A stretch of 64,000 nucleotides of DNA from assembly GCF_018069625.1 (NCBI RefSeq), contig NZ_CP072941.1, forward strand, positions 5,332,001 to 5,396,000. The letters run 5' to 3'. This document shows positions 18,589 through 41,120 of this stretch, piece by piece. The notes beneath the pieces are model-generated. The model did not search any database. It was not told the origin of the DNA and worked only from the letters and a program-made list of their open reading frames with translations. Each line of letters opens with the position of its first letter. Within the stretch, counting starts at the first letter, position 1. The stretch is from Streptomyces yatensis (GTDB lineage: Bacteria > Actinomycetota > Actinomycetes > Streptomycetales > Streptomycetaceae). The translations under genes and the position numbers were made by a program.

Positions 18589-18615
18589 CCCCGCGCCACC
18601 GCGAGTGGCGCGGGG
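18589..18615 (+). terminator. Hairpin after protease gene, overlapping the tRNA-Ser 5' end
   Basis: Perfect 11-bp stem (CCCCGCGCCAC with its complement) around a 5-base loop, 14 bp past the protease stop. No U run. Its right arm includes the first two bases of tRNA-Ser, so termination and tRNA 5' processing may interfere. Confidence 0.65.
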
Positions 18616-18700
18616 AGGCTTGCCCGAGCGGCCTAAGGGAACGGTCTTGAAAACCGTCGTGGCAGCGATGTCACCGAGGGTTCAAATCCCTCAGCCTCCG
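18614..18700 (+). tRNA. tRNA-Ser(UGA)
   Basis: An 87-nt class II tRNA. Acceptor GGAGGCT pairs with AGCCTCC, discriminator G, anticodon loop CTTGAAA with TGA, a long variable arm and the T arm GGTTCAAATCC. CCA is not encoded. Its 3' 56 bases are the left copy of the AICE 1 attachment repeat, so the gene stays intact after integration. Confidence 0.97.
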
Positions 18701-18702
18701 CA
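18645..18702. repeat. attL: 58-bp direct repeat, tRNA-Ser side
   Basis: Identical over 58 bp to 41,063-41,120. It begins in the anticodon arm of tRNA-Ser(UGA) and ends 2 bp beyond its 3' end, the usual attachment position for tyrosine-recombinase AICEs. Confidence 0.95.
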
Positions 18703-18847: not shown

Positions 18848-19603
18848 CTACCGATTGATCGGAATCTCGTACACGATCTCGCAGTGAGCGGCGGGTACGA
18901 CGATGTCCGCAGTCTCCACGGGCCGCCCCTGATCGCTGTAGTACGTCCGCCGGATGTGCGTGACGAGCGCGGCCTTCTGGATGCCGAGAAGCGACGCCTC
19001 CTCGGCGGTCGCCTGCCGGGGCTCCGGCTGCTCCACGGCATGGCTGACGGTGATTCCGATAGCGGCCATGCGATTGACGACGCCCGCCCCGGCGTGCGGC
19101 CCTCCCTCGGGGAGGACGACGAGCGTGCCGGCCGTGAGGTCGTACGGCTCCCAACTCGTCGAGAGCTGCACCGGCCTGCCGTCGGCCAGGAACTCGTACG
19201 ACGTCCGAACGCACAACTCGCCCTCGGCGATACCGAGTCGCGCCGCGATCTCCGCCGGAGCCGGCACCTTGGCGTCGGTCCGGCTCTCCCAGTCGCCGTG
19301 CTTGCCGACGGCCTTCATGTCCGCACGGAACGGCGACCCTTCAGGCTGCACACGCGCTGACGACCGGACGACCCGCACCCGTTGCCGGGGCTCGGCGACG
19401 TAGGTTCCCGATCCGGCTCGGCCCTCCAGCACGCCCTGGGAAATCAGCAACTCCTGCGCCCGGCGGACCACGTTTTCGCCCACCCCGCACTCCTGGCCGA
19501 TCTGGGCGCGGGACGGCAGGCGGTCCCCGGGCTCCCATGCGTGCTCCGCGATCCGCCGCCGGAGTTCTTCGGCGACGCGGAGATAGGGCGGCTGCTCAGG
19601 CAT
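18848..19603 (-). CDS. GntR/HutC-family regulator with UTRA domain
   Basis: A 251-residue repressor. The winged helix is at residues about 8-75 (LRRRIAEHAWEPGDRLPSRA, then GVGENVVRRAQELL and GVLEGRAGSGTYV). A UTRA ligand-binding domain covers residues about 95-245. The start codon lies 9 bp from two CTAG-N4-CTAG sites, its probable operator. It is divergent from a four-gene small operon. GntR/UTRA proteins of this type are common at AICE ends, where KorSA-like members repress transfer or replication genes. The ligand is unknown. Confidence 0.88.
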   Translation of the reverse strand: MPEQPPYLRVAEELRRRIAEHAWEPGDRLPSRAQIGQECGVGENVVRRAQELLISQGVLEGRAGSGTYVAEPRQRVRVVRSSARVQPEGSPFRADMKAVGKHGDWESRTDAKVPAPAEIAARLGIAEGELCVRTSYEFLADGRPVQLSTSWEPYDLTAGTLVVLPEGGPHAGAGVVNRMAAIGITVSHAVEQPEPRQATAEEASLLGIQKAALVTHIRRTYYSDQGRPVETADIVVPAAHCEIVYEIPINR

Positions 19604-21718: not shown

Positions 21719-22189
21719 CCTGATTCCCTAAGGGGCGAGGCGGTCATGTAAAGGGGTTTGGTTTGTGATGCACCCTACCAACGCGGTCCGGGCGGCCGAG
21801 CCTGCTTGCCCAGTGTGGTGAGAGTGGGAGATGTCGTCTGCATCTCACTGCCGCGGCCCCTTGACAGGCAGTCGTCGTCTCGGCGAACTGACGCATCTAC
21901 CCATCGCCACGCCAGCGTAAGACCCCGCCCTCCCTTGAGGCGCCCAGCCACCTACGCGAGTCAACCCACGGATCAGAGGTGGCGGAGCGGCGCGAGGGCT
22001 GCGTCCGGGCCGTGGGGACCCTTGGCGCCGCTGGCGACAACGGCCCACTTGGCGGCGCATACGATCTAGGTCTTGGTCCAGCGATGGGGACTAAGTCGCC
22101 TGCATAGCCGCCTGATGCTGAAGAACCGGGGTGAGCCGGTAGCCTTCACGGTGCGCAGCCAGCGGCAACGTCATGATCGGAGGAGTCCA
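21719..22189. other. Divergent intergenic region upstream of the putative defence operon
   Basis: About 470 bp that should hold the promoters of the 127-residue gene and of the four-gene operon. I find no strong promoter consensus. A GGAGGAG ribosome site occurs at about 22,179-22,185, 4-5 bases before an in-frame CTG. Confidence 0.4.
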
Positions 22190-24166
22190 CTGAACGCGGA
22201 TGACAGGGGAACGTCGGCAGACGGGCGACCGGCGCAGGTCCAGAGGTACGTGGCCGATGGATTTCTGTCCCTAACGTTCCCTCCCGATGACTCGAGCAGC
22301 TACCCTGTGCTTATGGATGACCGCACCACTTTGCTTGTTCCAGTAGATAAGCTAGTTGACTTTCAGCCGCAGGAACTTGGCGCTCTCGGACCCAAGTTCA
22401 AGGAGATCGTAAAATCGCTAGACGGAGCACTCCCCAGTCAGATTCGCGAAGTGCTGAAGCGGGAGGCTGAAAGCTGCGGACAGGACACTCCAACTGCTAA
22501 GTCATTCCGTGTAACCCTCCTCATCCTTCGAGACTACATTGACTCGGGCTACTACCCTTTGATGCAGGGTGACGATCTCGTGCTGGCGCCTCTACTCGAG
22601 GCAGAGAACGCTGACGAAGCGGAACGCCGTGAAGCGCTCCGAAAGTTGTATCGGCAAGCACGAACGAACGCTCTGAGGATTCCGGGGCAGCGTAAGTCGC
22701 TTGAGCGCCTCTTGGGGACACTCACCAAGAGTCAGTATCGCTCGGAGGAATGCATCGCTTCGCTTGCGGACGGTCCACCAGAGTTGCAGCTCACTGTGGC
22801 AGGGCAGGGCGCTGGGAGGGCGGTGTGGAGAGCCGTAAGGGCCACATGGTCTATGACTCCGGATGCTAGCGCGCCAGGCCGCGAGGTCTCAGTGGTACTG
22901 GAGGACAGAAAGTTCCCGGGAACTCCTCTGGGAGTTGCGCAATTCCGTAACGTAGTCCCTGAGATCCGCTGCAGGGACTCATGGCTTGGTCTCACTTCGC
23001 GAAACTCAGAAGGCGGACCCGGAGGCTTTGTCGACCGGTTGGATGGAGTTCCTGACGCCAAGGACAGAATTTCTGCCACGGTAAAGGTACTGACATCTTT
23101 GCTTGACGCAGTCAATCCAGATGGGCTCCCACCTATCGATCTTTCTGGCGGAACGCAGCAAGCGGAAAGCTTGCAAAAACTGGCTGCCCGATTGCGTATC
23201 GCCTACAACGATGCCCGCAAGTTGGGCCAGCGGGAACTGTCTCGTCAACTCCTGGCGCAGACCAAGCGCGCTGAAACTGCTGCCGAGCTCAGCCTCGGCC
23301 TTGCCGGCCTCCGCTCCTGCCTCGAATCTCCAGATGCTGCTCAATTCCTGCGTGAGAATGTTCTGATGCGACGTTTGGTGGATTCAGGTCTGCGAAAGAT
23401 CTGGCACTATCACATGGGTTTTGTTGCTCTCGAAATGAGTGTTTGCGGCGCTGCGCCACCGTTCGGCCCGATGAGGGCGGGGAAACTGGCGGCTGCGGTA
23501 GCCGGCAGCGAGACGGTACTCGAAGCATGGGGTCGGGATCGCCCCCTGGGGCAGATCGCCGCCACCATCTATAAGCCCGAGGTGCGAGAGAAAATTCCAA
23601 ATCCGGGCCCACTCGTGGTATTCACCAGCGGTCTATACCCAGGTCACAGTTCCCAGTACAACCGAGCCACTAGCGGCGGGCGTAGATGGATCCGGATCGG
23701 TGAAACCCGCGGTTTTGGATCGTTCCATGTTGCAGCCGACACAATTGATGCGATCGATGAATACAACGTGGCAGCCGATGGGTACTCGCACATCACAAGA
23801 ACGTTTGGTGAAGGCGCTAGCGCGCGCTTTAGGGCAATTGGGAAGGCTTTGTCCGGATTGGGGCTTCCTGATCTGAGGAGACACGACACCCGTCGCCCCA
23901 TGTATGCCCTGCCTCTGGTCAACGACCCAGGAGGTGTGCTTCTGGGGTGGGAGGCTGCAGGGGACGTGTCTGGGGCAACAGCGATCGATCTCGCGAAGCA
24001 GTGGTGGGATCGGTGGGTCAGTGCACGAGGCGCCCTCCTGGCCGAACAGGCCCGATGCACCCCAGACCTCATCGATGAACTTGCCGGGATGATGCGAGAG
24101 GTCGGGCCAACTCCCGATGAACCGAAGCGCCCCGACGAGCCGGAGCAACTAACGCTCGCCCTCTGA
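22190..24166 (+). CDS. DruA-like (DUF4338) protein, first gene of putative defence operon
   Basis: About 658 residues. The second half fits the DUF4338/DruA family known from Druantia anti-phage systems: PLGVAQFRNVVPEI...RDSWLGLTSRN (near 245), an MSVCGAAPPFG...GKLAAAVAGSE block, PLVVFTSGLYPGHSSQYNR (near 485), IRIGETRGFGSFH (near 503), a TFGEGASARFRAIGKALSGLGL block, and a C-terminal WWDRWVSARGALL. The N-terminal 230 residues are unassigned. E. coli DruA is shorter. The start is uncertain: GGAGGAG precedes an in-frame CTG (22,190); an ATG at 22,115 and a GTG at 22,250 are alternatives. Visibly lower GC than backbone genes. Assignment rests on remembered family motifs. Confidence 0.72.
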   Translation: MNADDRGTSADGRPAQVQRYVADGFLSLTFPPDDSSSYPVLMDDRTTLLVPVDKLVDFQPQELGALGPKFKEIVKSLDGALPSQIREVLKREAESCGQDTPTAKSFRVTLLILRDYIDSGYYPLMQGDDLVLAPLLEAENADEAERREALRKLYRQARTNALRIPGQRKSLERLLGTLTKSQYRSEECIASLADGPPELQLTVAGQGAGRAVWRAVRATWSMTPDASAPGREVSVVLEDRKFPGTPLGVAQFRNVVPEIRCRDSWLGLTSRNSEGGPGGFVDRLDGVPDAKDRISATVKVLTSLLDAVNPDGLPPIDLSGGTQQAESLQKLAARLRIAYNDARKLGQRELSRQLLAQTKRAETAAELSLGLAGLRSCLESPDAAQFLRENVLMRRLVDSGLRKIWHYHMGFVALEMSVCGAAPPFGPMRAGKLAAAVAGSETVLEAWGRDRPLGQIAATIYKPEVREKIPNPGPLVVFTSGLYPGHSSQYNRATSGGRRWIRIGETRGFGSFHVAADTIDAIDEYNVAADGYSHITRTFGEGASARFRAIGKALSGLGLPDLRRHDTRRPMYALPLVNDPGGVLLGWEAAGDVSGATAIDLAKQWWDRWVSARGALLAEQARCTPDLIDELAGMMREVGPTPDEPKRPDEPEQLTLAL

Positions 24167-24219
24167 TCGGCTTGCTTGAAGTTGCAGGTGATTGTCAGTC
24201 GCCTTCTGTAACGTGACCC

Positions 24220-25866
24220 GTGGGGAAACGTGGACAGAGCACAGGGGAGACGGCCATCATCCGCGACTCATCGATGACAGACCTAGCGACGCTGTTCCGA
24301 CGCGGCGAAGTGTACGCAGACTCCTGGTCTGTTGAGGTCAGACGGCAACTCAACGTCGAGGACTCGCTAGTTGGGCTTGTGACACAGGCTCTCAACGACG
24401 GCCGACACGTAGTGATCACTGGCAACGCAGGAGACGGAAAGAGCCATCTCCTGTCGATGGCCCTCGACGCGAGTGCGCCGAAGCCATCCATTGAGGCGGA
24501 CGATCGCTCTCCCGCGGCCCTGACTCCAGGGGATCGCCTGTTCATCCGTGACGCGGCAACGCTGGACGATGCAGCGATCCTTGCCTGGACCGATGCGGCT
24601 ACTGCGAACGACAGCCAACTCGTCATCACCCTCAACGAGGGCCCGTTGTCGTCGCTGGCGCGGCTCCAAGGCGAAGGGCTCTACGAGCAGGTGCGTGAGG
24701 TCACGCACGCCCGCGCTCGGGGCGAAAAGATGGACGATCCGAGCGGTGTCCTCCTGGTCAACCTTGCGGGCCGGCAACTGGTTCACGCGGGTTTCGTCAC
24801 GCGTGCCCTCGACCGCCTATTGCCTGCAGTCGATCCTTGCCGCACATGTGGTGATGACACTACGTGTCCGCGTACCGCTGGCCGAGACCTGTTGGCTCGA
24901 TCGCCCCAGGCGGCTGACCGCCTCACAAAGCTCCTGTCACTGCTGGGGCAGTCCGGACTTCGACTCACCGCCCGGGAATTGTGGGTATTCCTTGCAGAAC
25001 TGTTCTTCGGCTGGCAATGCCCGCCTCGTGGGCGCGACGTCCAAAAGCTGGCTGGATGGTGGTGGTCCAGAGTTTTCGACCCTGCCACGTCTCTGGGCCA
25101 AATGATTAGCCGAGAATTCGACCCTATCCACACCGCGAATTCATCCGTTGACAGTCATCTATGGTTAGGCAACAACGAACGAGTTGGCGTCGCACCCGAA
25201 GTGCCGCTGTTTAATCCTGCTGTCATCCACAGAAAGGATCGAAACGGGGCACTCAAAGCCTTCGCGGCGGCCAAGCGCGCCAGGTTCTTTCTTGCATCCG
25301 ACTTGCGTGTTGAGGAAATCATCGACAGGCAGTCGCATATCCCAGACTATGTGGATCTCCTTCAGGAAGCTCGAGATGAGCCGCACCGTGCAGTCCAGCG
25401 GATAGTCGCTGAAATAAATCGTTACCGCCTCACGGTAGGAACAGGTAAGCAACTACATCTCAGTCGACACCATCGACTCACGGCTGTGACTCGGCCATCC
25501 GTACTTGCTGCTAGCGCATCCATTAGTTCGGATGAACTTACAGTGCGGTTGCCGTATCTCCACGAAGATCACGGGGTCGAATCCGCCGGATTCAAACCGT
25601 CAAAACTTGAGCTTTCATGGAAGCAAGGTCGCGGCGCCGTCCTCTCGCTGGACTATGAAACATGGCGTCAGCTGCATCAGCCTCGAACAGTTCATTCGGA
25701 TAGGACTCAGGAGGCGCTCGACATGGCGCTTGATCTCTTCATTGGTCAGGCGCCGGTCAGGCCCGAAACTGATCCCGAGATCATTGCAGTTGATCACGCT
25801 ACTGGTGTGGTTACTAAAGTTACTGTGCGAGGCGGGCGCCGCCCTGAAATTGAGGTGAATCCATGA
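24220..25866 (+). CDS. P-loop ATPase resembling DptF
   Basis: A 548-residue ATPase. Walker A reads ITGNAGDGKSHLL (residues about 66-78), with the acidic GDGKS form seen in the phosphorothioation-dependent restriction protein DptF. A possible Walker B is SQLVITLNEGP near 130. A likely zinc knuckle has Cys 207, 210 and 216 (CRTCGDDTTC), followed by LTARELWVFLAELFFG. Length and position before a DptG-sized and a DptH-like gene support the comparison. A rare TTA leucine codon lies at 25,165-25,167. Its stop overlaps the next start by 4 bp. Start GTG at 24,220; an ATG at 24,274 is possible. Confidence 0.68.
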   Translation: MGKRGQSTGETAIIRDSSMTDLATLFRRGEVYADSWSVEVRRQLNVEDSLVGLVTQALNDGRHVVITGNAGDGKSHLLSMALDASAPKPSIEADDRSPAALTPGDRLFIRDAATLDDAAILAWTDAATANDSQLVITLNEGPLSSLARLQGEGLYEQVREVTHARARGEKMDDPSGVLLVNLAGRQLVHAGFVTRALDRLLPAVDPCRTCGDDTTCPRTAGRDLLARSPQAADRLTKLLSLLGQSGLRLTARELWVFLAELFFGWQCPPRGRDVQKLAGWWWSRVFDPATSLGQMISREFDPIHTANSSVDSHLWLGNNERVGVAPEVPLFNPAVIHRKDRNGALKAFAAAKRARFFLASDLRVEEIIDRQSHIPDYVDLLQEARDEPHRAVQRIVAEINRYRLTVGTGKQLHLSRHHRLTAVTRPSVLAASASISSDELTVRLPYLHEDHGVESAGFKPSKLELSWKQGRGAVLSLDYETWRQLHQPRTVHSDRTQEALDMALDLFIGQAPVRPETDPEIIAVDHATGVVTKVTVRGGRRPEIEVNP

Positions 25867-27353
25867 CGTTCGTAGCTGGCATCGAGCTAACCGCATGGTT
25901 CAGAGAGAACGTCACGGATACTCTTGTTTTCAGTACGGCCGCTACGTCTGCGGAGCCCGTCCATGTATTGAATGGCTTCCTCGCGCAGTGTCTGGTAGGC
26001 CCTCGAGCGCCGAAACTGGCGAGCGCTCTGATTGCCAGAAACAGCAGTTCGTGGGTGACAGACGAAAAACCTCTTCGGCAAGTACTTGCGCGGGCGCCAA
26101 TTCCCTTCAAGGTCCCGTCAAGTTCTGCCGATCTGGACTCAGTTCGCCATTTGCTGAGAGCGCTGCTAGCAGGCGATAAAGCGGTATTCGCTTCTATGCA
26201 GTCATACCAAGTTGCGCATCCGGCCTTTATCACAAACGACCGTACGGGTGGGGCAATGGGGCTTCTCTGCGCCTCCCTCCTGCTTAATCATGCCTCTGGG
26301 GCTGGTGCGCTCACCTCCTTGGTGGAGCGCCTTTGCGAGACGCAGCCAAACCCGTATTGGGTGCTGCAGTCTGCCCTTGCGGGGCCAATTGATCCGAGCA
26401 GTTTTAGCATCTCGGAGGTCCGCCCGGTTCCATGGGTAACGAACCACGTCACCGAAGAGTTCGCGAACAACCTCGGCAGTTTGCTACGCCGATCGGTGCA
26501 ACTAGGCAGTGTGGCTGCTGATAGCCTCGATGCGCTCAAAGTGCTCGCTAATGCCATAGAGTTCGTATGTGTTCTCTCATACGCCCAAGTTCCGAACTTG
26601 TCGGTTGCTGGCAGCCTGACACCGCTTCTGGCAGTAGTTTCCCCAGATGCAGATACCGTTCTCGACTCGTCCGCTCGAGGCTCACTCCCTCTGATGCACA
26701 GCGCTATGGACAACTGGATCGCATCAAAATTGCAGCGGACCGTACGCGAGCGACTTGGGGATGCCGTTCAAGACAAGAGTGCTGCGGAAGCCTTTCTCCT
26801 GCAGACGATACCGTTCTCAGCAGGAGCAAAGGAGAAGCGCCTCGAGCGTAGTCGGCTGTTGGTTGAGAAGACACCCGAAGCCCTCGAACGCTTGACCCCT
26901 AAAGCGAGTACGACACATGCTCCGCAGGATCTCAGCGGACCAGTCGCGTTGGTACTGCTTGACCTCCTCAAAACAACAATGGCGCAGAACTATTCGCAGT
27001 GGTTTGACCATCATGCTCGACGTTGCGGCTTCCTGGCACCGCGCAGGGGGAACACCAGTAAGCGTTTCTGTATTGAAGCGAACCTAATAACGACGCTCGT
27101 CCTGGCTGTGCTCGAAGAGCAAGAGTCGGAAGTCTCCTATGACGAGTTCCTAAAGAGGCTTGAAACTCGGTTCGGCATCGCAGTGGGTCCAACAGCACAG
27201 ACGCGCTCCATGGCGCCGCGAGCATCGGAATCGGAACTGGAGTCGAACAGGGATGCACTGGCAGATCTCCTGACGCGCCTTGGCCTAGCTCGCGCCTACA
27301 GCGATAACACGACAGAGGTGCTAAACCCACTCAAGATTTGGAACGTTCGGTGA
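25863..27353 (+). CDS. Hypothetical protein in the DptG position
   Basis: A 496-residue soluble protein without any motif I recognise. It is mostly helical, with a C-terminal segment (ALADLLTRLGLARAYSDNTTEVLNPL) that looks like a winged-helix end. It starts inside the stop of the ATPase gene (ATGA) and is followed 20 bp later by the FtsK/HerA-like gene, so stoichiometric co-expression is likely. By order and size it corresponds to DptG of dptFGH clusters, but I see no sequence feature that proves this. Confidence 0.6.
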   Translation: MTFVAGIELTAWFRENVTDTLVFSTAATSAEPVHVLNGFLAQCLVGPRAPKLASALIARNSSSWVTDEKPLRQVLARAPIPFKVPSSSADLDSVRHLLRALLAGDKAVFASMQSYQVAHPAFITNDRTGGAMGLLCASLLLNHASGAGALTSLVERLCETQPNPYWVLQSALAGPIDPSSFSISEVRPVPWVTNHVTEEFANNLGSLLRRSVQLGSVAADSLDALKVLANAIEFVCVLSYAQVPNLSVAGSLTPLLAVVSPDADTVLDSSARGSLPLMHSAMDNWIASKLQRTVRERLGDAVQDKSAAEAFLLQTIPFSAGAKEKRLERSRLLVEKTPEALERLTPKASTTHAPQDLSGPVALVLLDLLKTTMAQNYSQWFDHHARRCGFLAPRRGNTSKRFCIEANLITTLVLAVLEEQESEVSYDEFLKRLETRFGIAVGPTAQTRSMAPRASESELESNRDALADLLTRLGLARAYSDNTTEVLNPLKIWNVR

Positions 27354-27373
27354 ACCGTGCAGAGGGGTCGGCA

Positions 27374-30300
27374 ATGGATGCTCAGGATGTCCTCACCGAG
27401 GCAATTTGCGTAACCGTCAGAGGTAAGTTTGAGACGGGCTTCGGATATCTACGGCTTCCCTACCTGTCACCTGGAATGCCTCTGGAGCGGATCATCAGCC
27501 GGCTCTCTGAAGAGGTGGCTGGACTTAATGTTGCAAATTTCGCCTCTACTCGGATTGAGCGCGACAATGTAACTGATCGAGTCACAGTAGCCATCCGCTG
27601 GCGAAATGAGGGGCGACGTCCAATCCTCGTAGTTGGTGACCTTCATCGGAATAGGGCCCATGGGCTGATGAATGTGCCACAAGTAACTGCCGATGAAGTA
27701 AGGCGCGCAGCTTTTGCCACTCTGGGGGCTGAACACACGCAGGGAGTTAGCGATAACGTTGTGCCACTTTTGGCTGCCTTGCAAGAGCGCAACGTTCCAC
27801 TGGACTACGTGGCAGATTATTGTGCTGCCCTGAACCCGCTGAAGCCGGGGAGCGGCGATCTCTCGCGCAAGTTTCTTTGGCGGCTGGGTTTGCTGCCCGA
27901 TCACCGAACTGCCCAATCAATCGATTCGAATCGTCTGCAGTTGAACGAGCAGACCGTGGATTCTGTCAGGATGGCAGATCCGGGAACTCTCCAGCGGTTC
28001 ATCGCAAACTCCACTGCCGAGTACGCCAAGCTCCGAGAGTTCGGCCGGTCTGGCAGGAGAGAACTGCTTGCAGGGTTGAACCTGGACGACGTTATGGATG
28101 CTATGCGAGTTGCCGCGATCCGCTCACGCACGCGATTCAGGGATGACACCAGCGGGCCGGACGACCGAGTTGACATTCTGGAGTTGGTCGATTCAGGAGA
28201 GGTCTCAGAAGCGGATCTACTTGAAGCTGTTCGAGATCATGACGGAGGTAATCAACTCGACCTCAATAGCGGCGGTGTGACATGGGATGCTCCGAGTTTG
28301 GAGCAGGTACTCAACGACCCATCTTTGGTCTCCGCTGAGCCGGGCACTTCGGTTCAGGCAGCAGGTGAGTCCAACACGCTGTTTGACAGTCCGGATGATG
28401 AACAGCAGGCCGACGAGGATAGCCTAGCGACGTTTTACGGCTCTATGGCTGGCGGAACGACCTCAAAATTCGGCACGGCGACACAGTGGCAGTCACTTGG
28501 AGATCTTCGCCAGGAACTCGAGGATCTAGCTGACGATGCGCCCGTTGCTGGACGTCTGGCTCTGAATGCTTTCGACCGGTTGGCTGATAGCAGAATGGCT
28601 CTCGCCCACTTCGCACCGTCCATCGCAACCGAAGGCCTCAGGCTTTTCGTGAGTTCACAGACTCTGCGTAGCCAAGGTGATGAACTCGTATCCTCGTGGG
28701 AAGACCTTTGGTCAGCTTTAAGGCAGATGCGCCAGGAGATTCCCAACGAACAAGCCACTTTCGTGAAGCGCTTGGCTGACTCCCTCACGCTGGTGGACGT
28801 AGTTGCAGAGCGCGACTCCGAGGGAACTCGCGCCCGCCTTCTGCCGCTGCACCCTGTCGTCCTCGAGCCGCGGGTTCGGGCCGCGACGATGCTCCGCGAA
28901 ATGCAGTCGGGTGGTGAACTGGACAGCGAGTTCATCGATACCGTGTCAGCCAACATCGATCCTGCTGCACCCTCTTTGGGAATCGTAATAGGGAAAGATC
29001 CGGAGGCCTTGGCTTTCTCCGGTATTTCTGAGACTGGAGAACCAGTCTACGGAAAGAGGCGACTCGCGTCGGGTACGCCTGAGACGACATATGCTGTCCA
29101 GCAAGTCATTGATCGGTTCCTTGTAGCCTATCCGTTCGCGCAGCTTAGTCTGTGCGTTGCCTTGATCCGTCCCACTCCGACTGTGGTGCGACGTCTTTTC
29201 GAGCGGTTGCAAGATCCTAAGTTTTGTTCTGCGACGCGCATTGTCTTGCGCGTTTTCAGCCGGGAGAATGCTACCGAGATCAGGAACTTGGTAGCGGCAA
29301 CTGCGGCGGAACACGATGATCGCAGCCGCGTAGACGTGCAGATCTTCGAAACAGACCCTGACGTGACTGCGCTTCAGGAGGGCGGAGCGCCGCACGTTTC
29401 CTTCCTGTTTGACGTCTCCGATAGTGGGACCGCTGGGTTTGGAAGCCTCCTGCAGTCGGAGCAGCAGGGGAGCGTTGTCACGGAGTGGACCTTTGTTACG
29501 CACAAACGCACGACCGTCATCAAGCCGGCGGCGTCTGGTCGTCTGGCTGCGCTTCTGAATAAGCAGAGTGAACTGTCCAGTGCCGATCCTGCCGAACTGG
29601 ATCGCAGTCCGCTGCTTTCACCCGGGGAAACTACTCACCTTTCAGAGCTCGGGCAGGCAACCAGTTGGCTAGTACTGGTTGAGTCAACGAGCGCCCTTGC
29701 TGCGCCCGAGACCATTGAGCCGCCGGAATCCGTTGATGAGCAACTCTCCGAGAGCGAATATGACGGAAGACTCCACCTTCTTGGGCGGGTAGGAACAGGT
29801 TCTCACACAGCCTACGTTTACTGTCGGGACCTGACGTTGTTGGTCGACCCGCCTTTGCGCATGATGCAAGGAAACAGTTGGCTTGACCCCGAGCCTAACA
29901 GCCTGATGACTTTCCTTACCAACACGGTTCGCCGCGCTCTCCCTGAAGGGCTTCTAGGGTTCTTCGGGACTAAGGGACCTCTCAGCGATGATGCGATCCT
30001 CGGAAGGATCGGGGTCGCTGCAGTCCTAGCTGAACTACAGGAGGACGAAGGCAGTCTGGTTATGAGCCTAGACACTGATGCTGCCCGAAAATGGTTGCAA
30101 CGTCGTCGCAGCAACAGGCGTGCTGATCTTCTGCAAATCAAATGGACCGAAAACGGTCCATGCGTCAAGGTAATTGAGGTTAAGTCAACTCGCGATGCCT
30201 TGGATGGCGGAAGCATTCCCCAGCATGTGCACGAGGCTTCTGATCAAGTACTAGAGATGATGGATGTCCTGCGCGGCGTCTTTGCTCAGTCCAGCGGGGA

Positions 30301-31888
30301 CCTCTTCGCCGCGAGTCGTCGCGAAATTCTTAAGCGTCAGGTCTTCCTCGAAGCGTTGCAACAGTGGGAAGAAACTCGCGTTCAGGACTGGCCTGAGTAC
30401 AGGAAACGTCTGCGTAGTCTGAACGATCTTTTCAAACTGGATCCTTCTTCGGCGCCGGTCCATCTGGATGGCGAGGTTGTGGTGGTGGGTATTGATGCCC
30501 CACAGACCAACCTCCCTGACCGGATCGGAGAGGCCGACCTGCCATTGAAGGTTCTGGGCGGCGATTGGTTGCGACGTGCACTTCGTCATGGAAGAGACCA
30601 AGTAGCCGTCCCTAGCTACCTTGGTGAACTCATTTCAAGCCTCGGTGGAGAACCGCCTCAGGATGCCATGACGGCGACAGCAGTCGAACCTCAGACTTCT
30701 AAGACGCCGACCACTGATGTCGAGCAAGATACTCAGACGCGGTCAGAGTCTGAGAAGGTGGCGGAGAGGTGGGATGACGAAGCACAGCGCGCCGGACTAG
30801 CTCAGCAAGTGGTCAATGCTTTGCGAGCCCGTAATGTTCCCCTACGTAGTCTTAACGAGAAGGACATTGTTACCGGTCCATCAGTGTTGCGGGTTCCGTT
30901 TGAGCTCGAGCCGGGAGCCAGGCTTTCAATGCTCGCAAATCAAGAAATGGATATCGCTCGCGATCTTGGAGTTTCCGGGATCCGGGTCGATAACCTTCCT
31001 GGACGTGCGCGCTTTGCAGTTCTAGAAATTCCGCGGCAGCATCGGAGCATCGCAGACGTATCAGAACTGGAGGCTCCGGCTGGGCATGCTATCTCGGTAG
31101 CTCTCGGTACAGACTATGAATTCAACCCATTCTGGGTGCCCCTGCACGAGCTACCCCATCTCCTGATCGCTGGAACCACTGGGAGCGGAAAGAGTACTTT
31201 GCTCCGCTCCGTCCTGTGGCAACTTACGCGAATGTACTCTGTCAATGCTCTCGACCTAGTGCTCCTGGACGCTAAAGGTATGGGGGACTTCAGGGATCTC
31301 GCCAGAGCGCCTCAGATTCGGCAGAGCGGTGACTATCATCTCGGGGCCGACGGAGCTCTGGATCTACTCGGTGACATCGTGGAGAGGCGCGTTCCGGAGC
31401 GCATCGAAGCTTTCAATCGATATGCCGAAGCGGCGATGTATCGTCCAGATCCGAAGAACATTACTGATGTGGTTTCGCTCTGCGAGGATGCAGCCGCACG
31501 CGGTGTGGATGCTCCGCTGAGGCCGCTAGTTGTTGTGATTGACGAGTTCTCCGAAATTGCACTTTCCTCTTCGGACCGTCGACGTTTCGAAACTCTGGTT
31601 ACCCGTTTCGTTCAGCGGGCTCGAGCTGTTGGGGGGCATCTGATTACTGCCACGCAGCGTCCAAGCGTAGAGATCGTGCCTGGGGTAATGAAGGCCAACT
31701 TCGCGCGCCTGTCTCTCATGGTGAGGAGTGCGACGGATAGCAGAGTTATCCTTGATGCGTCCGGCGCAGAAAGGCTGCTGCCGATGGGTGACATGCTTTT
31801 TGCGTCTCCGCACCAAGGTCTGGTTCGTCTACAAGGTTTCTCTGCACAAGGGCCGTATCTCCCTGTATCTGGTGGTACAGCGGTTTAG
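27374..31888 (+). CDS. Giant FtsK/HerA-like ATPase with nuclease-like motif, DptH-like
   Basis: About 1504 residues. The C-terminal 380 residues form a DNA-translocase-type ATPase: LLIAGTTGSGKSTLL (about 1263-1277), LVLLDAKGMGDF, Walker B LVVVIDEFSEIAL (about 1385) and GGHLITATQRPSVEIVPG. In the middle, RRADLLQIKW (about 915) followed by CVKVIEVKST (about 930) has the D-x(n)-E-x-K spacing of PD-(D/E)xK nucleases. The first 900 residues are unassigned. Architecture and gene order match DptH of phosphorothioation-dependent restriction. A TTA codon is at 28,718-28,720. Start chosen at the ATG preceded by GAGGGG; TTG 27,338 and GTG 27,350 are alternatives. Confidence 0.75.
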   Translation: MDAQDVLTEAICVTVRGKFETGFGYLRLPYLSPGMPLERIISRLSEEVAGLNVANFASTRIERDNVTDRVTVAIRWRNEGRRPILVVGDLHRNRAHGLMNVPQVTADEVRRAAFATLGAEHTQGVSDNVVPLLAALQERNVPLDYVADYCAALNPLKPGSGDLSRKFLWRLGLLPDHRTAQSIDSNRLQLNEQTVDSVRMADPGTLQRFIANSTAEYAKLREFGRSGRRELLAGLNLDDVMDAMRVAAIRSRTRFRDDTSGPDDRVDILELVDSGEVSEADLLEAVRDHDGGNQLDLNSGGVTWDAPSLEQVLNDPSLVSAEPGTSVQAAGESNTLFDSPDDEQQADEDSLATFYGSMAGGTTSKFGTATQWQSLGDLRQELEDLADDAPVAGRLALNAFDRLADSRMALAHFAPSIATEGLRLFVSSQTLRSQGDELVSSWEDLWSALRQMRQEIPNEQATFVKRLADSLTLVDVVAERDSEGTRARLLPLHPVVLEPRVRAATMLREMQSGGELDSEFIDTVSANIDPAAPSLGIVIGKDPEALAFSGISETGEPVYGKRRLASGTPETTYAVQQVIDRFLVAYPFAQLSLCVALIRPTPTVVRRLFERLQDPKFCSATRIVLRVFSRENATEIRNLVAATAAEHDDRSRVDVQIFETDPDVTALQEGGAPHVSFLFDVSDSGTAGFGSLLQSEQQGSVVTEWTFVTHKRTTVIKPAASGRLAALLNKQSELSSADPAELDRSPLLSPGETTHLSELGQATSWLVLVESTSALAAPETIEPPESVDEQLSESEYDGRLHLLGRVGTGSHTAYVYCRDLTLLVDPPLRMMQGNSWLDPEPNSLMTFLTNTVRRALPEGLLGFFGTKGPLSDDAILGRIGVAAVLAELQEDEGSLVMSLDTDAARKWLQRRRSNRRADLLQIKWTENGPCVKVIEVKSTRDALDGGSIPQHVHEASDQVLEMMDVLRGVFAQSSGDLFAASRREILKRQVFLEALQQWEETRVQDWPEYRKRLRSLNDLFKLDPSSAPVHLDGEVVVVGIDAPQTNLPDRIGEADLPLKVLGGDWLRRALRHGRDQVAVPSYLGELISSLGGEPPQDAMTATAVEPQTSKTPTTDVEQDTQTRSESEKVAERWDDEAQRAGLAQQVVNALRARNVPLRSLNEKDIVTGPSVLRVPFELEPGARLSMLANQEMDIARDLGVSGIRVDNLPGRARFAVLEIPRQHRSIADVSELEAPAGHAISVALGTDYEFNPFWVPLHELPHLLIAGTTGSGKSTLLRSVLWQLTRMYSVNALDLVLLDAKGMGDFRDLARAPQIRQSGDYHLGADGALDLLGDIVERRVPERIEAFNRYAEAAMYRPDPKNITDVVSLCEDAAARGVDAPLRPLVVVIDEFSEIALSSSDRRRFETLVTRFVQRARAVGGHLITATQRPSVEIVPGVMKANFARLSLMVRSATDSRVILDASGAERLLPMGDMLFASPHQGLVRLQGFSAQGPYLPVSGGTAV

Positions 31889-31924
31889 GTCCCAGCAGAG
31901 GCTTGTGACTCTTAAGTCGGTGGA

Positions 31925-32072
31925 GCGGCTTTGGGCTGGAGCTGCTTTGGGGCGAGAGATCATGGCCCCGTAAGCTTCCGGCGCGTCGGGCAGTCTGTGG
32001 ACCTGCCCGCTAAAGCACGACGTTGGGGCCATGATCTTAGAGGCTCGCCCCAAAGTGGCTGCCTAAAGCCGT
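31925..32072. repeat. Long imperfect inverted repeat downstream of defence operon
   Basis: Left arm about 31,925-31,969 and right arm about 32,025-32,072 are complementary with small gaps; shared blocks are CGGCTTT, CTTTGGGGCGAG and AGATCATGGCCCC. A second hairpin sits in the centre (CGGGCAG at 31,987-31,993 with CTGCCCG at 32,003-32,009). It could be a strong bidirectional terminator, a MITE-like insertion or the remnant of an insertion sequence. It marks the right edge of the low-GC cargo. Confidence 0.7.
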
Positions 32073-39661: not shown

Positions 39662-39845
39662 GGTCGCGGAGCGGCTCGGTACGGGCGTCCGCTTCCCCCG
39701 CCGCCTCATCGAGGAACGCCGCATCACCTTCGTCAAGGTTGGTCGGCACGTCCGCATACCCGAGAGCGCTGTAGAAGCGTTTGTGGGCGCCAACACCGTG
39801 GAGCCGATCGCCCTGCGGCTTACGGGACTCAGGAGGGCTGCCTGA
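39636..39845 (+). CDS. xis: Excisionase (Xis), MerR-like HTH
   Basis: A 69-residue helix-turn-helix protein: DRLLTVYEVAERLGTGVRFPRRLIEERRI is the recognition region, followed by FVKVGRHVRIPESAVEAFV. The start overlaps the end of the Rep gene by 26 bp and its stop overlaps the Int start (TGATG). In this class Xis directs excision with Int. Confidence 0.87.
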   Translation: MDRLLTVYEVAERLGTGVRFPRRLIEERRITFVKVGRHVRIPESAVEAFVGANTVEPIALRLTGLRRAA

Positions 39846-41023
39846 TGGCTGGCAAGCGCAAATCCCGCCGGGACTTCGGACGCGTGCGTAAGCTGCCCTC
39901 TGGCCGGTTCCAGGCTCGGTATCCGGGACCTGACGGTGTCCTGCGTCCGGCGGATCGAACCTTCGCAACGTCGACGGACGCGGATCGCTGGCTGATACGG
40001 AAGCGCATTGAGATCGAAGAGGGGCGCTGGCTCGATCCGGTCGAGGGGCAGACGACCGTACGCGACTGGGCTGCCCGCTGGCTCGCTGCCGTCTCGCCGC
40101 AGCTCAAGCACAAGACGCAAGCCTCGTACCGGTCGCTGATCAACTCGCTGATCAATCCGGCACTCGGTGACCGCGAACTGTCGACCCTCCGGCCGATCAC
40201 GATCGCTGAGTGGGTCGGCGCGATGAAGACCAAGGGGCTCAGCGCGTCACGTATCCGGCAGGCGTACCGGGTCCTGTCGCAGATCATGAGGGCGGCCGTC
40301 GACAACGACATGATCCCGCAGACGCCGTGCCGGGGCGTGAAGCTGCCGAGGATGCCGCAGACTGAGCCGCACATCCTCACGCCGCTCGAAGCCTCCCGGA
40401 TCGTACGGAGTGCCGACAAGCCGCATGACCTGTTGATCGCGCTCCTCGCGTATGCGGGACTGCGCGTCGGTGAGGCGTTCGCCCTCCGGCGCATAGACAT
40501 CGACGTGCCCGGCGGCTTCGTCCTGGTCGATGAGAACCTGGCAGAGGCCAACGGCACCTTGGTCTTCGACACGCCGAAGTCTCACCAGAAGCGGCTCCTG
40601 CGAGTCGGCCCGTCGCTCGCTAAGCGGCTCGGTCGGTACCTGGAGTCCCTGCCGGGCGGAGATGACGCGCTCCTGTTCACGACCCCGGGCGGCAAGCCGC
40701 TGCGCTACAACCAGTGGCGCAAGGCGTACTTCGACCCTGCGGTGACGGCGGCCGGGCTGACCGACGTGACCCCACACGACCTTCGCGCCTCACACGGAAC
40801 GTGGGTCGCCGATCAGTACGGCGTGATGACCGCGGCCCACCGGCTCGGTCACTCGAACGCGAGCGTCACGACCCGGCACTACGCCCGACCGGTCGCCGGA
40901 CGCGATGACCAGGTGGCCGAAGCGGCGGACTCCTGGCTCAGCGGGCACAACCATGAGCCTGGGGCACGTAGCGGGCACGACGACGATGACGATGGCTCCG
41001 CTGGGGCGCTCGCACCCCTCTGA
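39845..41023 (+). CDS. int: Tyrosine recombinase integrase of AICE 1
   Basis: A 392-residue site-specific recombinase. The N-terminal arm-binding and core-binding domains come first (residues about 1-170), then the catalytic domain with Arg in LAYAGLRVGEAFALR, His-x-x-Arg in PHDLRASHG, His in AHRLGHSNAS and the Tyr in TTRHYARP. Ends 39 bp before the right attachment repeat. Catalyses attP x attB recombination at tRNA-Ser(UGA). Confidence 0.95.
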   Translation: MAGKRKSRRDFGRVRKLPSGRFQARYPGPDGVLRPADRTFATSTDADRWLIRKRIEIEEGRWLDPVEGQTTVRDWAARWLAAVSPQLKHKTQASYRSLINSLINPALGDRELSTLRPITIAEWVGAMKTKGLSASRIRQAYRVLSQIMRAAVDNDMIPQTPCRGVKLPRMPQTEPHILTPLEASRIVRSADKPHDLLIALLAYAGLRVGEAFALRRIDIDVPGGFVLVDENLAEANGTLVFDTPKSHQKRLLRVGPSLAKRLGRYLESLPGGDDALLFTTPGGKPLRYNQWRKAYFDPAVTAAGLTDVTPHDLRASHGTWVADQYGVMTAAHRLGHSNASVTTRHYARPVAGRDDQVAEAADSWLSGHNHEPGARSGHDDDDDGSAGALAPL

Positions 41024-41062: not shown

Positions 41063-41120
41063 TCTTGAAAACCGTCGTGGCAGCGATGTCACCGAGGGTT
41101 CAAATCCCTCAGCCTCCGCA
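41063..41120. repeat. attR: 58-bp direct repeat, right end of AICE 1
   Basis: Perfect copy of 18,645-18,702. It carries the 3' part of tRNA-Ser without the 5' half, so it is not a functional tRNA gene. Confidence 0.95.

What the first reader, a model, noticed from the sequence alone, without database searches (positions are those of the whole stretch)
22115..31888. Candidate undescribed defence system: DruA-like protein with a DptFGH-like ATPase trio
Seen: four tightly packed rightward genes, a DUF4338-type protein, a GDGKS P-loop ATPase with zinc knuckle, a 496-residue unknown and a roughly 1500-residue FtsK/HerA-like ATPase, as AICE cargo. Known: DruA belongs to Druantia and normally works with the DruE helicase; DptF, DptG and DptH restrict DNA lacking phosphorothioates and need DndBCDE. 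Neither DruE nor any Dnd gene is visible. Inference: a hybrid system in which the DruA-like protein replaces the modification-sensing part and the trio acts as effector.
Basis: partly seen in the sequence, partly recalled or inferred. Interest (0 to 1): 0.88.

Follow-up and report, generated by a model that had tools for sequence, protein, structure and literature searches.

The report
DruA with DndFGH-type restriction trio
A mobile element in an actinobacterial (probably Streptomyces) chromosome carries a four-gene operon that looks like a restriction-type defence, in which a protein of acetyltransferase-like fold (DruA) sits where related systems keep their DNA-marking enzymes, and the same gene set recurs in distant bacteria and salt-loving archaea.

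Summary
Four genes under purifying selection (22313-31888; the first starts about 200 bp later than reported) form a rightward operon in a 22.5-kb AICE bounded by exact 40-bp tRNA-Ser repeats. Gene 1 is a DruA homologue (PF14236, 72.9 bits). Genes 2-4 are homologues of the DndFGH/SspFGH trio; the last keeps a PD-(D/E)xK motif and an FtsK motor. The set is no chance neighbourhood: of 79 DruA loci from one genome scan, 59 have F fused to or directly behind DruA, and 55 hold F, G and H. By the models used the host genome has no DruE or DndC. AlphaFold and Foldseek point, short of significance, to a GNAT acyltransferase fold for DruA. Elsewhere FGH sits directly behind DNA-modification genes (ssp genes; a cytosine methylase), so my best guess is that DruA provides a self mark and FGH destroys unmarked DNA; a recognition or toxic-effector role for DruA is nearly as likely. 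Prior art: Rakesh et al. 2024 noted DUF4338/GNAT fused to DndF in one phrase. So: a new variant of a known kind with an open, testable question. No function was tested.

The parts
22313..24166 (+). DruA-like protein, 617 aa, GNAT-like fold suggested by prediction
   Evidence: PF14236 72.9 bits; PADLOC DruA 1.5e-36; start set by codon test; AlphaFold mean pLDDT 83.3
24220..25866 (+). F: P-loop protein, DndF/SspF-like, 548 aa
   Evidence: PADLOC SspF 7e-12; Walker A T67-K74 and N139 conserved in a 66-row alignment
24838..24867 (+). three-cysteine cluster of F (C207, C210, C216), putative zinc insert
   Evidence: sequence; Rakesh 2024 describes a Zn-chelating insert in some DndF
25863..27353 (+). 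G: DndG/SspG-like protein, 496 aa
   Evidence: PADLOC SspG 2.7e-19; NCBIfam MAD7 1.1e-8, 34.6 bits, far below its cut-off of 410
27338..31888 (+). H: nuclease plus FtsK/HerA motor, DndH/SspH-like, 1516 aa
   Evidence: PADLOC SspH 2.4e-46; FtsK_SpoIIIE 91 bits and FtsK_alpha 29.9 bits
30125..30184 (+). PD-(D/E)xK-like motif of H: D930, E947, K949
   Evidence: each invariant in 50 of 50 aligned H proteins
31172..31192 (+). FtsK Walker A of H, G1279-K1285 (Walker B D1402-E1403 and Q1440 further on)
   Evidence: D1402, E1403, Q1440 50 of 50; K1285 46 of 50
18662..18701 (+). attL, 3' part of tRNA-Ser(tga)
   Evidence: exact 40-bp repeat; tRNA 18614-18701
41080..41119 (+). attR, exact copy of the tRNA-Ser 3' part
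39845..41023 (+). tyrosine integrase of the AICE
   Evidence: PF00589 56.7 bits
38273..39661 (+). RepSA replication initiator of the AICE
   Evidence: PF20199 490 bits
34875..36329 (+). FtsK/Tra transfer protein of the AICE
   Evidence: PF01580 161.9 bits

Best explanation
The operon is a restriction-type anti-invader system, DruA-FGH. F, G and H form a DndFGH/SspFGH-type complex: G and parts of H bind DNA, F binds a nucleotide, and H moves along DNA with its FtsK motor and cuts with its PD-(D/E)xK domain. DruA is a GNAT-like protein in the slot where related loci keep DNA-modifying enzymes; most likely it places, or helps read, an acyl-type self mark on host DNA, so that FGH attacks only unmarked incoming DNA. 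Shown here: gene order, homology, intact motifs, purifying selection, no DndC and no full DruE by the models used. Suggested by prediction: the GNAT fold. Inferred: complex formation, cutting, and the marking role of DruA.
For: F is fused to or directly behind DruA in 59 of 79 scan loci, and G and H follow in 53 of these; 44 of 45 complete sets keep the order DruA-F-G-H on one strand. Distances of DruA follow those of F, G and H (Mantel r 0.967, 0.973, 0.969; 50 loci). D930, E947 and K949 of H are invariant in 50 of 50; F keeps Walker A and N139, matching the Walker B asparagine that Rakesh 2024 describes for DndF. FGH lies right behind genes that read as sspABCD in L113 and L114 and right behind a C5-cytosine methylase in L107. 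DndC exceeds its cut-off in 2 of 40 genomes with DruA-FGH. A short DruA model (pLDDT 87.2) matches mostly GNATs in the PDB, best prob 0.99. Mom of phage Mu, a DNA-modifying enzyme, is placed in the GNAT superfamily (PMC7824862 passage). SspFGH damages DNA lacking its mark (PMC8092258 abstract). A 2026 review lists Druantia under specificity by DNA modification and says that a phage protein evades type I Druantia by promoting methylation of phage DNA (PMC12904381 passages).
Against: Foldseek E-values stay above 0.001 for both DruA models in the PDB, and the short DruA that gave the GNAT list comes from a DruE-linked locus (L152), not an FGH-linked one. DruA shows no profile similarity to Mom (hhalign prob 0.1, with a narrow Mom alignment). 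The review names methylation, not acylation, for Druantia. GNATs more often modify proteins or small molecules (general knowledge). Fusion of DruA to F fits a sensor or effector as well; Rakesh 2024 proposed a suicidal co-effector. DruA also occurs with DruE and without F in 8 of 79 loci. The Mantel test does not remove shared ancestry. The G tree does not resolve DruA-linked from Ssp-linked trios.
Confidence: 0.4

Rival explanations
1. DruA is an effector: FGH senses and handles invading DNA and, when it fails, DruA acylates a host protein or tRNA and stops the cell.
For: This is the reading of Rakesh et al. 2024 for N-terminal fusions to DndF, GNAT/DUF4338 included. GNAT toxins TacT and AtaT2 are among the fold matches of the short DruA, at E 0.61 and 0.44. 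DruA is fused to F in 27 of 79 loci.
Against: Rakesh describe such fusions as occasional and variable, whereas DruA is the regular partner of this FGH branch in the loci sampled, with matching divergence, which suits a core part better than an optional backup. I did not search for an antitoxin.
Confidence: 0.27
2. DruA is a DNA- or phage-recognition subunit without relevant catalysis that recruits either FGH or, in Druantia I, DruE, to invading DNA.
For: The same DruA family occurs with DruE and no F in 8 of 79 scan loci, and with F, G and H in 55 of 79; six haloarchaeal loci (L012, L013, L016 from plasmids; L081, L084, L087 from the scan; some nearly identical) carry a divergent DruE operon beside DruA-FGH. 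A shared adaptor would explain this.
Against: The family keeps invariant polar residues (R176, R190, R221, D222, R319, K391, Q448, Y449 in the 72-row alignment), which may mean a catalytic or ligand site; not tested.
Confidence: 0.25
3. FGH is a stand-alone system and DruA is a separate, merely adjacent defence gene in a defence island.
For: DndFGH is often found without DndABCDE (Rakesh 2024 abstract and section 25).
Against: 27 fusions in 79 loci, 44 of 45 complete sets in one order, short gaps (DruA-F median 12 bp, 21 of 23 unfused pairs within 60 bp), correlated divergence.
Confidence: 0.05

Closest known systems
DndFGH with an N-terminal DUF4338/GNAT fusion on DndF (Rakesh, Aravind and Krishnan 2024, PMC10853773; abstract, passages and sections 19-22 and 25 read)
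   Same: Same trio and same DUF4338 domain joined to F; 27 of 79 of our loci have this fusion.
   Different: The paper gives it one phrase among variable fusions; the words DruA and Druantia do not occur in its text (counts 0 and 0). Here DruA is a separate gene, and a regular partner across phyla.
SspABCD-SspFGH (PMC8092258; outline and abstract read)
   Same: F, G and H are homologous (PADLOC 7e-12, 2.7e-19, 2.4e-46); FGH directly follows the partner genes in L113 and L114.
   Different: DruA takes the place of the ssp modification genes; HMMs of DruA-linked F, G and H score Ssp trios at 44-173 bits, but most full-length DruA-linked proteins shown at several hundred bits or more.
Druantia type I (DruABCDE)
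   Same: DruA homologue.
   Different: FGH instead of DruE in the operon; no full DruE in the genome by the PADLOC model. Haloarchaeal relatives have both.
MADS (known to me from review passages and model names; original paper not read)
   Same: H matches mad8 (7.4e-22), G matches MAD7 weakly.
   Different: No methylase among the 11 window proteins scanned.

Membership tests
Druantia (any type) | DruE helicase present (DruE is the only part shared by all types, PMC13192584 passage) | tested here: not met
   Own genome: three partial DruE1 matches, best 43 bits, in one 988-aa ORF; the control rings in 12 of 14 genomes
Druantia (any type) | DruA (type I) | tested here: met
   PF14236 72.9 bits, PADLOC 1.5e-36
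DndFGH/SspFGH restriction trio | F, G and H in tandem | tested here: met
   in the reverse test HMMs of DruA-linked F, G and H find the trios of L107, L113, L114 and L115
DndFGH/SspFGH restriction trio | H with REase motif and HerA/FtsK ATPase | tested here: met
   (motif and alignment; the REase fold itself was not modelled)
DndFGH/SspFGH restriction trio | F with P-loop and N in place of Walker B D | tested here: met
   N139 in 65 of 66; that N139 is the Walker B position is my reading; feature as described
DndFGH/SspFGH restriction trio | G with three winged HTH domains | not tested
   G was not folded; only HMM matches
Dnd or Ssp phosphorothioate defence | modification gene DndC | tested here: not met
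   TIGR03183: no match in own genome; over the cut-off in 2 of 40 genomes with DruA-FGH. SspD and other ssp/dnd genes were not searched on their own
MADS | methylase within the system | tested here: inconclusive
   none among the four operon proteins or seven other AICE proteins; other AICE ORFs were not scanned
GNAT superfamily (fold of DruA) | GNAT fold by structure comparison | tested here: inconclusive
   Short DruA: GNATs dominate the 50 rows shown, best E 9.2e-3, prob 0.99; window DruA: no match under 0.1, malonyl-CoA decarboxylase recurs at E 0.49 to 2.4
Mom DNA modification enzymes | profile similarity to Mom | tested here: not met
   hhalign prob 0.1; Mom alignment of 15 closely related rows
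AICE | tRNA att repeats, integrase, RepSA, FtsK/Tra | tested here: met

The most novel reading that the evidence does not exclude
DruA is a self-marking enzyme of GNAT fold that puts an acyl-type modification on host DNA, and FGH destroys DNA without it. This would explain DruA in Druantia I too, and make the FGH trio a general restriction module that plugs into phosphorothioation, cytosine methylation or acylation.
Probability: 0.3. Interest if true: 0.87.

Novelty: new variant of a known kind. Interest (0 to 1): 0.62.

Why it matters
I saw no biochemical activity assigned to DruA in the passages I read. A recurrent pairing with a restriction trio whose other partners modify DNA turns 'what does DruA do' into a direct test: look for a DruA-dependent DNA adduct. 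It also shows one defence trio used with several partners, and one partner (DruA) found with two kinds of effector (FGH, DruE), in some haloarchaeal loci side by side.

Tried and rejected
Mom kinship by sequence: rejected at this sensitivity. Relatives of window F and DruA in viral contigs by single protein: none; with the DruA alignment 7 loci, of which L154, L155 and L158 have DruA fused to F and L156, L157 have DruE. Plasmid search with window F: no match. Tree of G (69 rows): deep branches open, the window group on a long branch (3.16), so single origin of DruA-linked trios is neither shown nor refuted. Solved relatives by sequence: none for F (E up to 0.1), G and residues 1-1137 of H (E up to 1); for DruA only five matches at 0.11-0.14. 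DndC contigs of two relatives (L116, L117): my DruA, F, G, H and DruE HMMs found nothing there. The stretch 22115-22312: rejected as coding. Flanking families: 12 shown, judged by eye except those; none looked like a DNA methylase, one in 4 loci looks like an RNA methyltransferase. Literature: nine searches of open PMC papers, some preprints among them; only PMC10853773 was seen to join DUF4338 and DndF. Bell et al. 2025 (PMC12458937, abstract, outline, passages) on Druantia helicases has no 'DndFGH', 'FGH', 'SspF' or 'GNAT'. PMC12602166, which holds both DruA and DndF (listing), was not opened. The MADS paper was not read.

Full report
Observation. Synonymous/nonsynonymous codon differences are 71/16 and 121/25 (DruA from 22313), 40/15 and 121/38 (F), 67/19 and 109/57 (G), 193/46 and 287/108 (H), but 2/8 and 3/10 for 22115-22312. 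So the four genes are under purifying selection and DruA most likely starts at ATG 22313. The host element is an AICE: exact 40-bp copies of the tRNA-Ser 3' end at 18662 and 41080, with integrase, RepSA and FtsK/Tra between them. G+C is 0.57-0.59 over 22001-32000 against 0.64-0.79 in the other 2-kb bins of the window.

Identity. P0001 is a DruA homologue (PF14236 72.9 bits, cut-off 27; PADLOC 1.5e-36). F, G and H match PADLOC SspF, SspG and SspH; F matches DndF only at 2.5e-3 and the NCBIfam DptF model at 0.33. H has FtsK_SpoIIIE and FtsK_alpha domains. In an alignment of 50 full-length H proteins, D930, E947, K949, D1402, E1403 and Q1440 are invariant. F keeps its Walker A (66 of 66 at T67, G68, G71-K74) and N139 (65 of 66); the latter fits the odd Walker B asparagine that Rakesh et al. 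describe for DndF. FtsK_alpha in H recalls their clade-2 DndH.

Is the gene set conserved? In 391 genomes of the order DruA was found in 6: own, a 96% identical copy in G344 (its locus L008 has all four genes), and four at 29-32% identity, of which L006 has a DruE part next to it. F was found in 1 of 396 phylum genomes (own), G by the SspG model in 2 of 396. So the operon is rare in its own group. On plasmids 14 records have a DruA match. L012, L013, L014 and L016 (haloarchaea) have DruA-F-G-H, L015 has it in split ORFs, and L009 (Hymenobacter canadensis) has DruA fused to F, then G, transposase genes and H in two pieces. The 7 plasmid records that match a haloarchaeal F are all among those 14. 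One genome-wide scan with four FGH-linked DruA sequences gave 129 stretches, 94 confirmed, 80 kept, 79 loci. Eight have DruE and no F; ten have neither F nor DruE (L035 of these has an H-like part fused to DruA); in L029 and L068 F, G and H lie elsewhere in the locus, L029 with only a fragment of F and L068 behind a second, cut-off DruA. Counting those two, 55 of 79 hold all four. The sample is biased, since the query came from FGH-linked DruA. Of 45 sets complete by a 60% coverage rule, 44 keep the order on one strand. Divergence of DruA tracks that of F, G and H (Mantel r 0.967 to 0.973, p 0.001, 50 loci); shared descent was not removed. Origins include Bacillota, Bacteroidota, Actinomycetota, Myxococcota, Spirochaetota, Kiritimatiellota, Verrucomicrobiota, Acidobacteriota, Pseudomonadota and haloarchaea (labels); many are MAGs, where a contig may be misbinned.

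Which partners does FGH have? Besides DruA, the trio lies directly behind genes annotated as cysteine desulfurase, DUF4007, hypothetical and PAPS reductase in L113 and L114, which I read as sspABCD, and directly behind a C5-cytosine methylase (192.7 bits) in L107 from an actinobacterium. HMMs of DruA-linked F, G and H find these as distant kin (H 65-173 bits, against 1000 or more for most full DruA-linked H shown). The DndC model matches at E 0.001 in 10 of 40 genomes with DruA-FGH (40 of the 59 loci with F, plus G344, were given; two loci share a genome) but exceeds its cut-off in 2, so phosphorothioation by this route is not generally present. In six haloarchaeal loci a divergent operon holds a DruE1 (1559 bits for P0014 of L012), a weak DruD-like protein (1.4e-6) and a third protein without a PADLOC match; L014 and L083 show part of a DruE at the edge of the stretch, and L096 (Myxococcales) has DruE too.

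Fold of DruA. The window DruA model has mean pLDDT 83.3. Against the PDB nothing reached 0.001; the best row was a designed nanocage (0.13), and malonyl-CoA decarboxylase recurred at E 0.49 to 2.4 (its catalytic part is GNAT-like, recalled). Against viral models two uncharacterised proteins of Faunusvirus and Yasminevirus (giant viruses, recalled) were significant (9e-8, 1e-6). A natural short DruA (L152, viral contig, DruE-linked, 410 aa; Pfam DruA 276.8 bits for its first 399 aa; mean pLDDT 87.2) gave mainly GNATs: by my count 42 of the 50 rows shown carry titles of acetyl- or related acyltransferases, best E 9.2e-3, probability 0.99 (226 matches at E up to 10 in all). This agrees with the label GNAT that Rakesh et al. 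give to DUF4338, but stays short of 0.001. Profile comparison with Mom was negative.

Mechanism. The trio is best read as a translocating nuclease complex; SspFGH damages DNA without its mark. Since the gene slot before F elsewhere holds modification enzymes, and GNAT folds include the DNA modifier Mom, I favour DruA as a marking enzyme, at 0.4 for the whole statement. A review links Druantia to DNA methylation, which favours a modification theme but not acylation. A suicidal acyltransferase (the published guess for the fusion) and a recognition subunit remain open. None of this was tested by experiment.

Extra gene. Of the 55 scan loci with DruA, F, G and H, 31 also encode an SfsA-like protein (PF17746 OB and PF03749 RE domains in the four examples scanned), mostly just behind H; in L040 and L031 (the latter cut before most of H) it lies before DruA and in L076 on the other strand. 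The window, L008 and L026 have none at E 1e-3. It also occurs beside a DruE-type DruA in L070.

Novelty. In the papers I could search the combination has no name that I saw, but the fusion was reported in 2024. I rate it a new variant of a known kind.

Noticed in passing
L027:19780-20475 and 33 other scan loci: A fifth gene, an SfsA-like protein (OB fold plus restriction-endonuclease-like domain), lies mostly just behind H in 31 of 55 DruA-FGH scan loci; absent from the window.
   Followed up: partly
L091, L101 (L100 in part): Two F-G-H sets flank DruA in divergent directions; in L091 and L101 the H on the DruA side ends near HMM position 780-800 of 1419, before the FtsK part, while the other H reaches it, as if two trios share one motor.
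   Followed up: no
L012, L013, L016, L081, L084, L087: Haloarchaea carry DruA-F-G-H divergently to an operon with DruE1, a weak DruD-like protein and an unknown protein.
   Followed up: partly
L107:6415-15984: A C5-cytosine methylase gene overlaps the start of an F-G-H trio in an actinobacterium: a possible methylation-based FGH system.
   Followed up: partly
L035:10025-14443: DruA appears fused to H from HMM position 285 onward in one ORF, with no G and only 50 positions of F; could be a deletion or an assembly fault.
   Followed up: no
L041, L045, L046, L047, L062, L095 upstream of DruA: A gene pair (in L047 an ABC-3C CTD11 protein and a DUF2326 protein) recurs, ending about 0.3-0.5 kb before DruA-FGH, in six loci.
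   Followed up: no
BFVD A0A3G4ZXG3 and A0A5K0UAJ3: Uncharacterised proteins of Faunusvirus and Yasminevirus are the only fold matches at E 0.001 or better of the window DruA among viral models.
   Followed up: no
window 18848-19603: GntR/UTRA regulator just inside attL of the AICE, minus strand.
   Followed up: no
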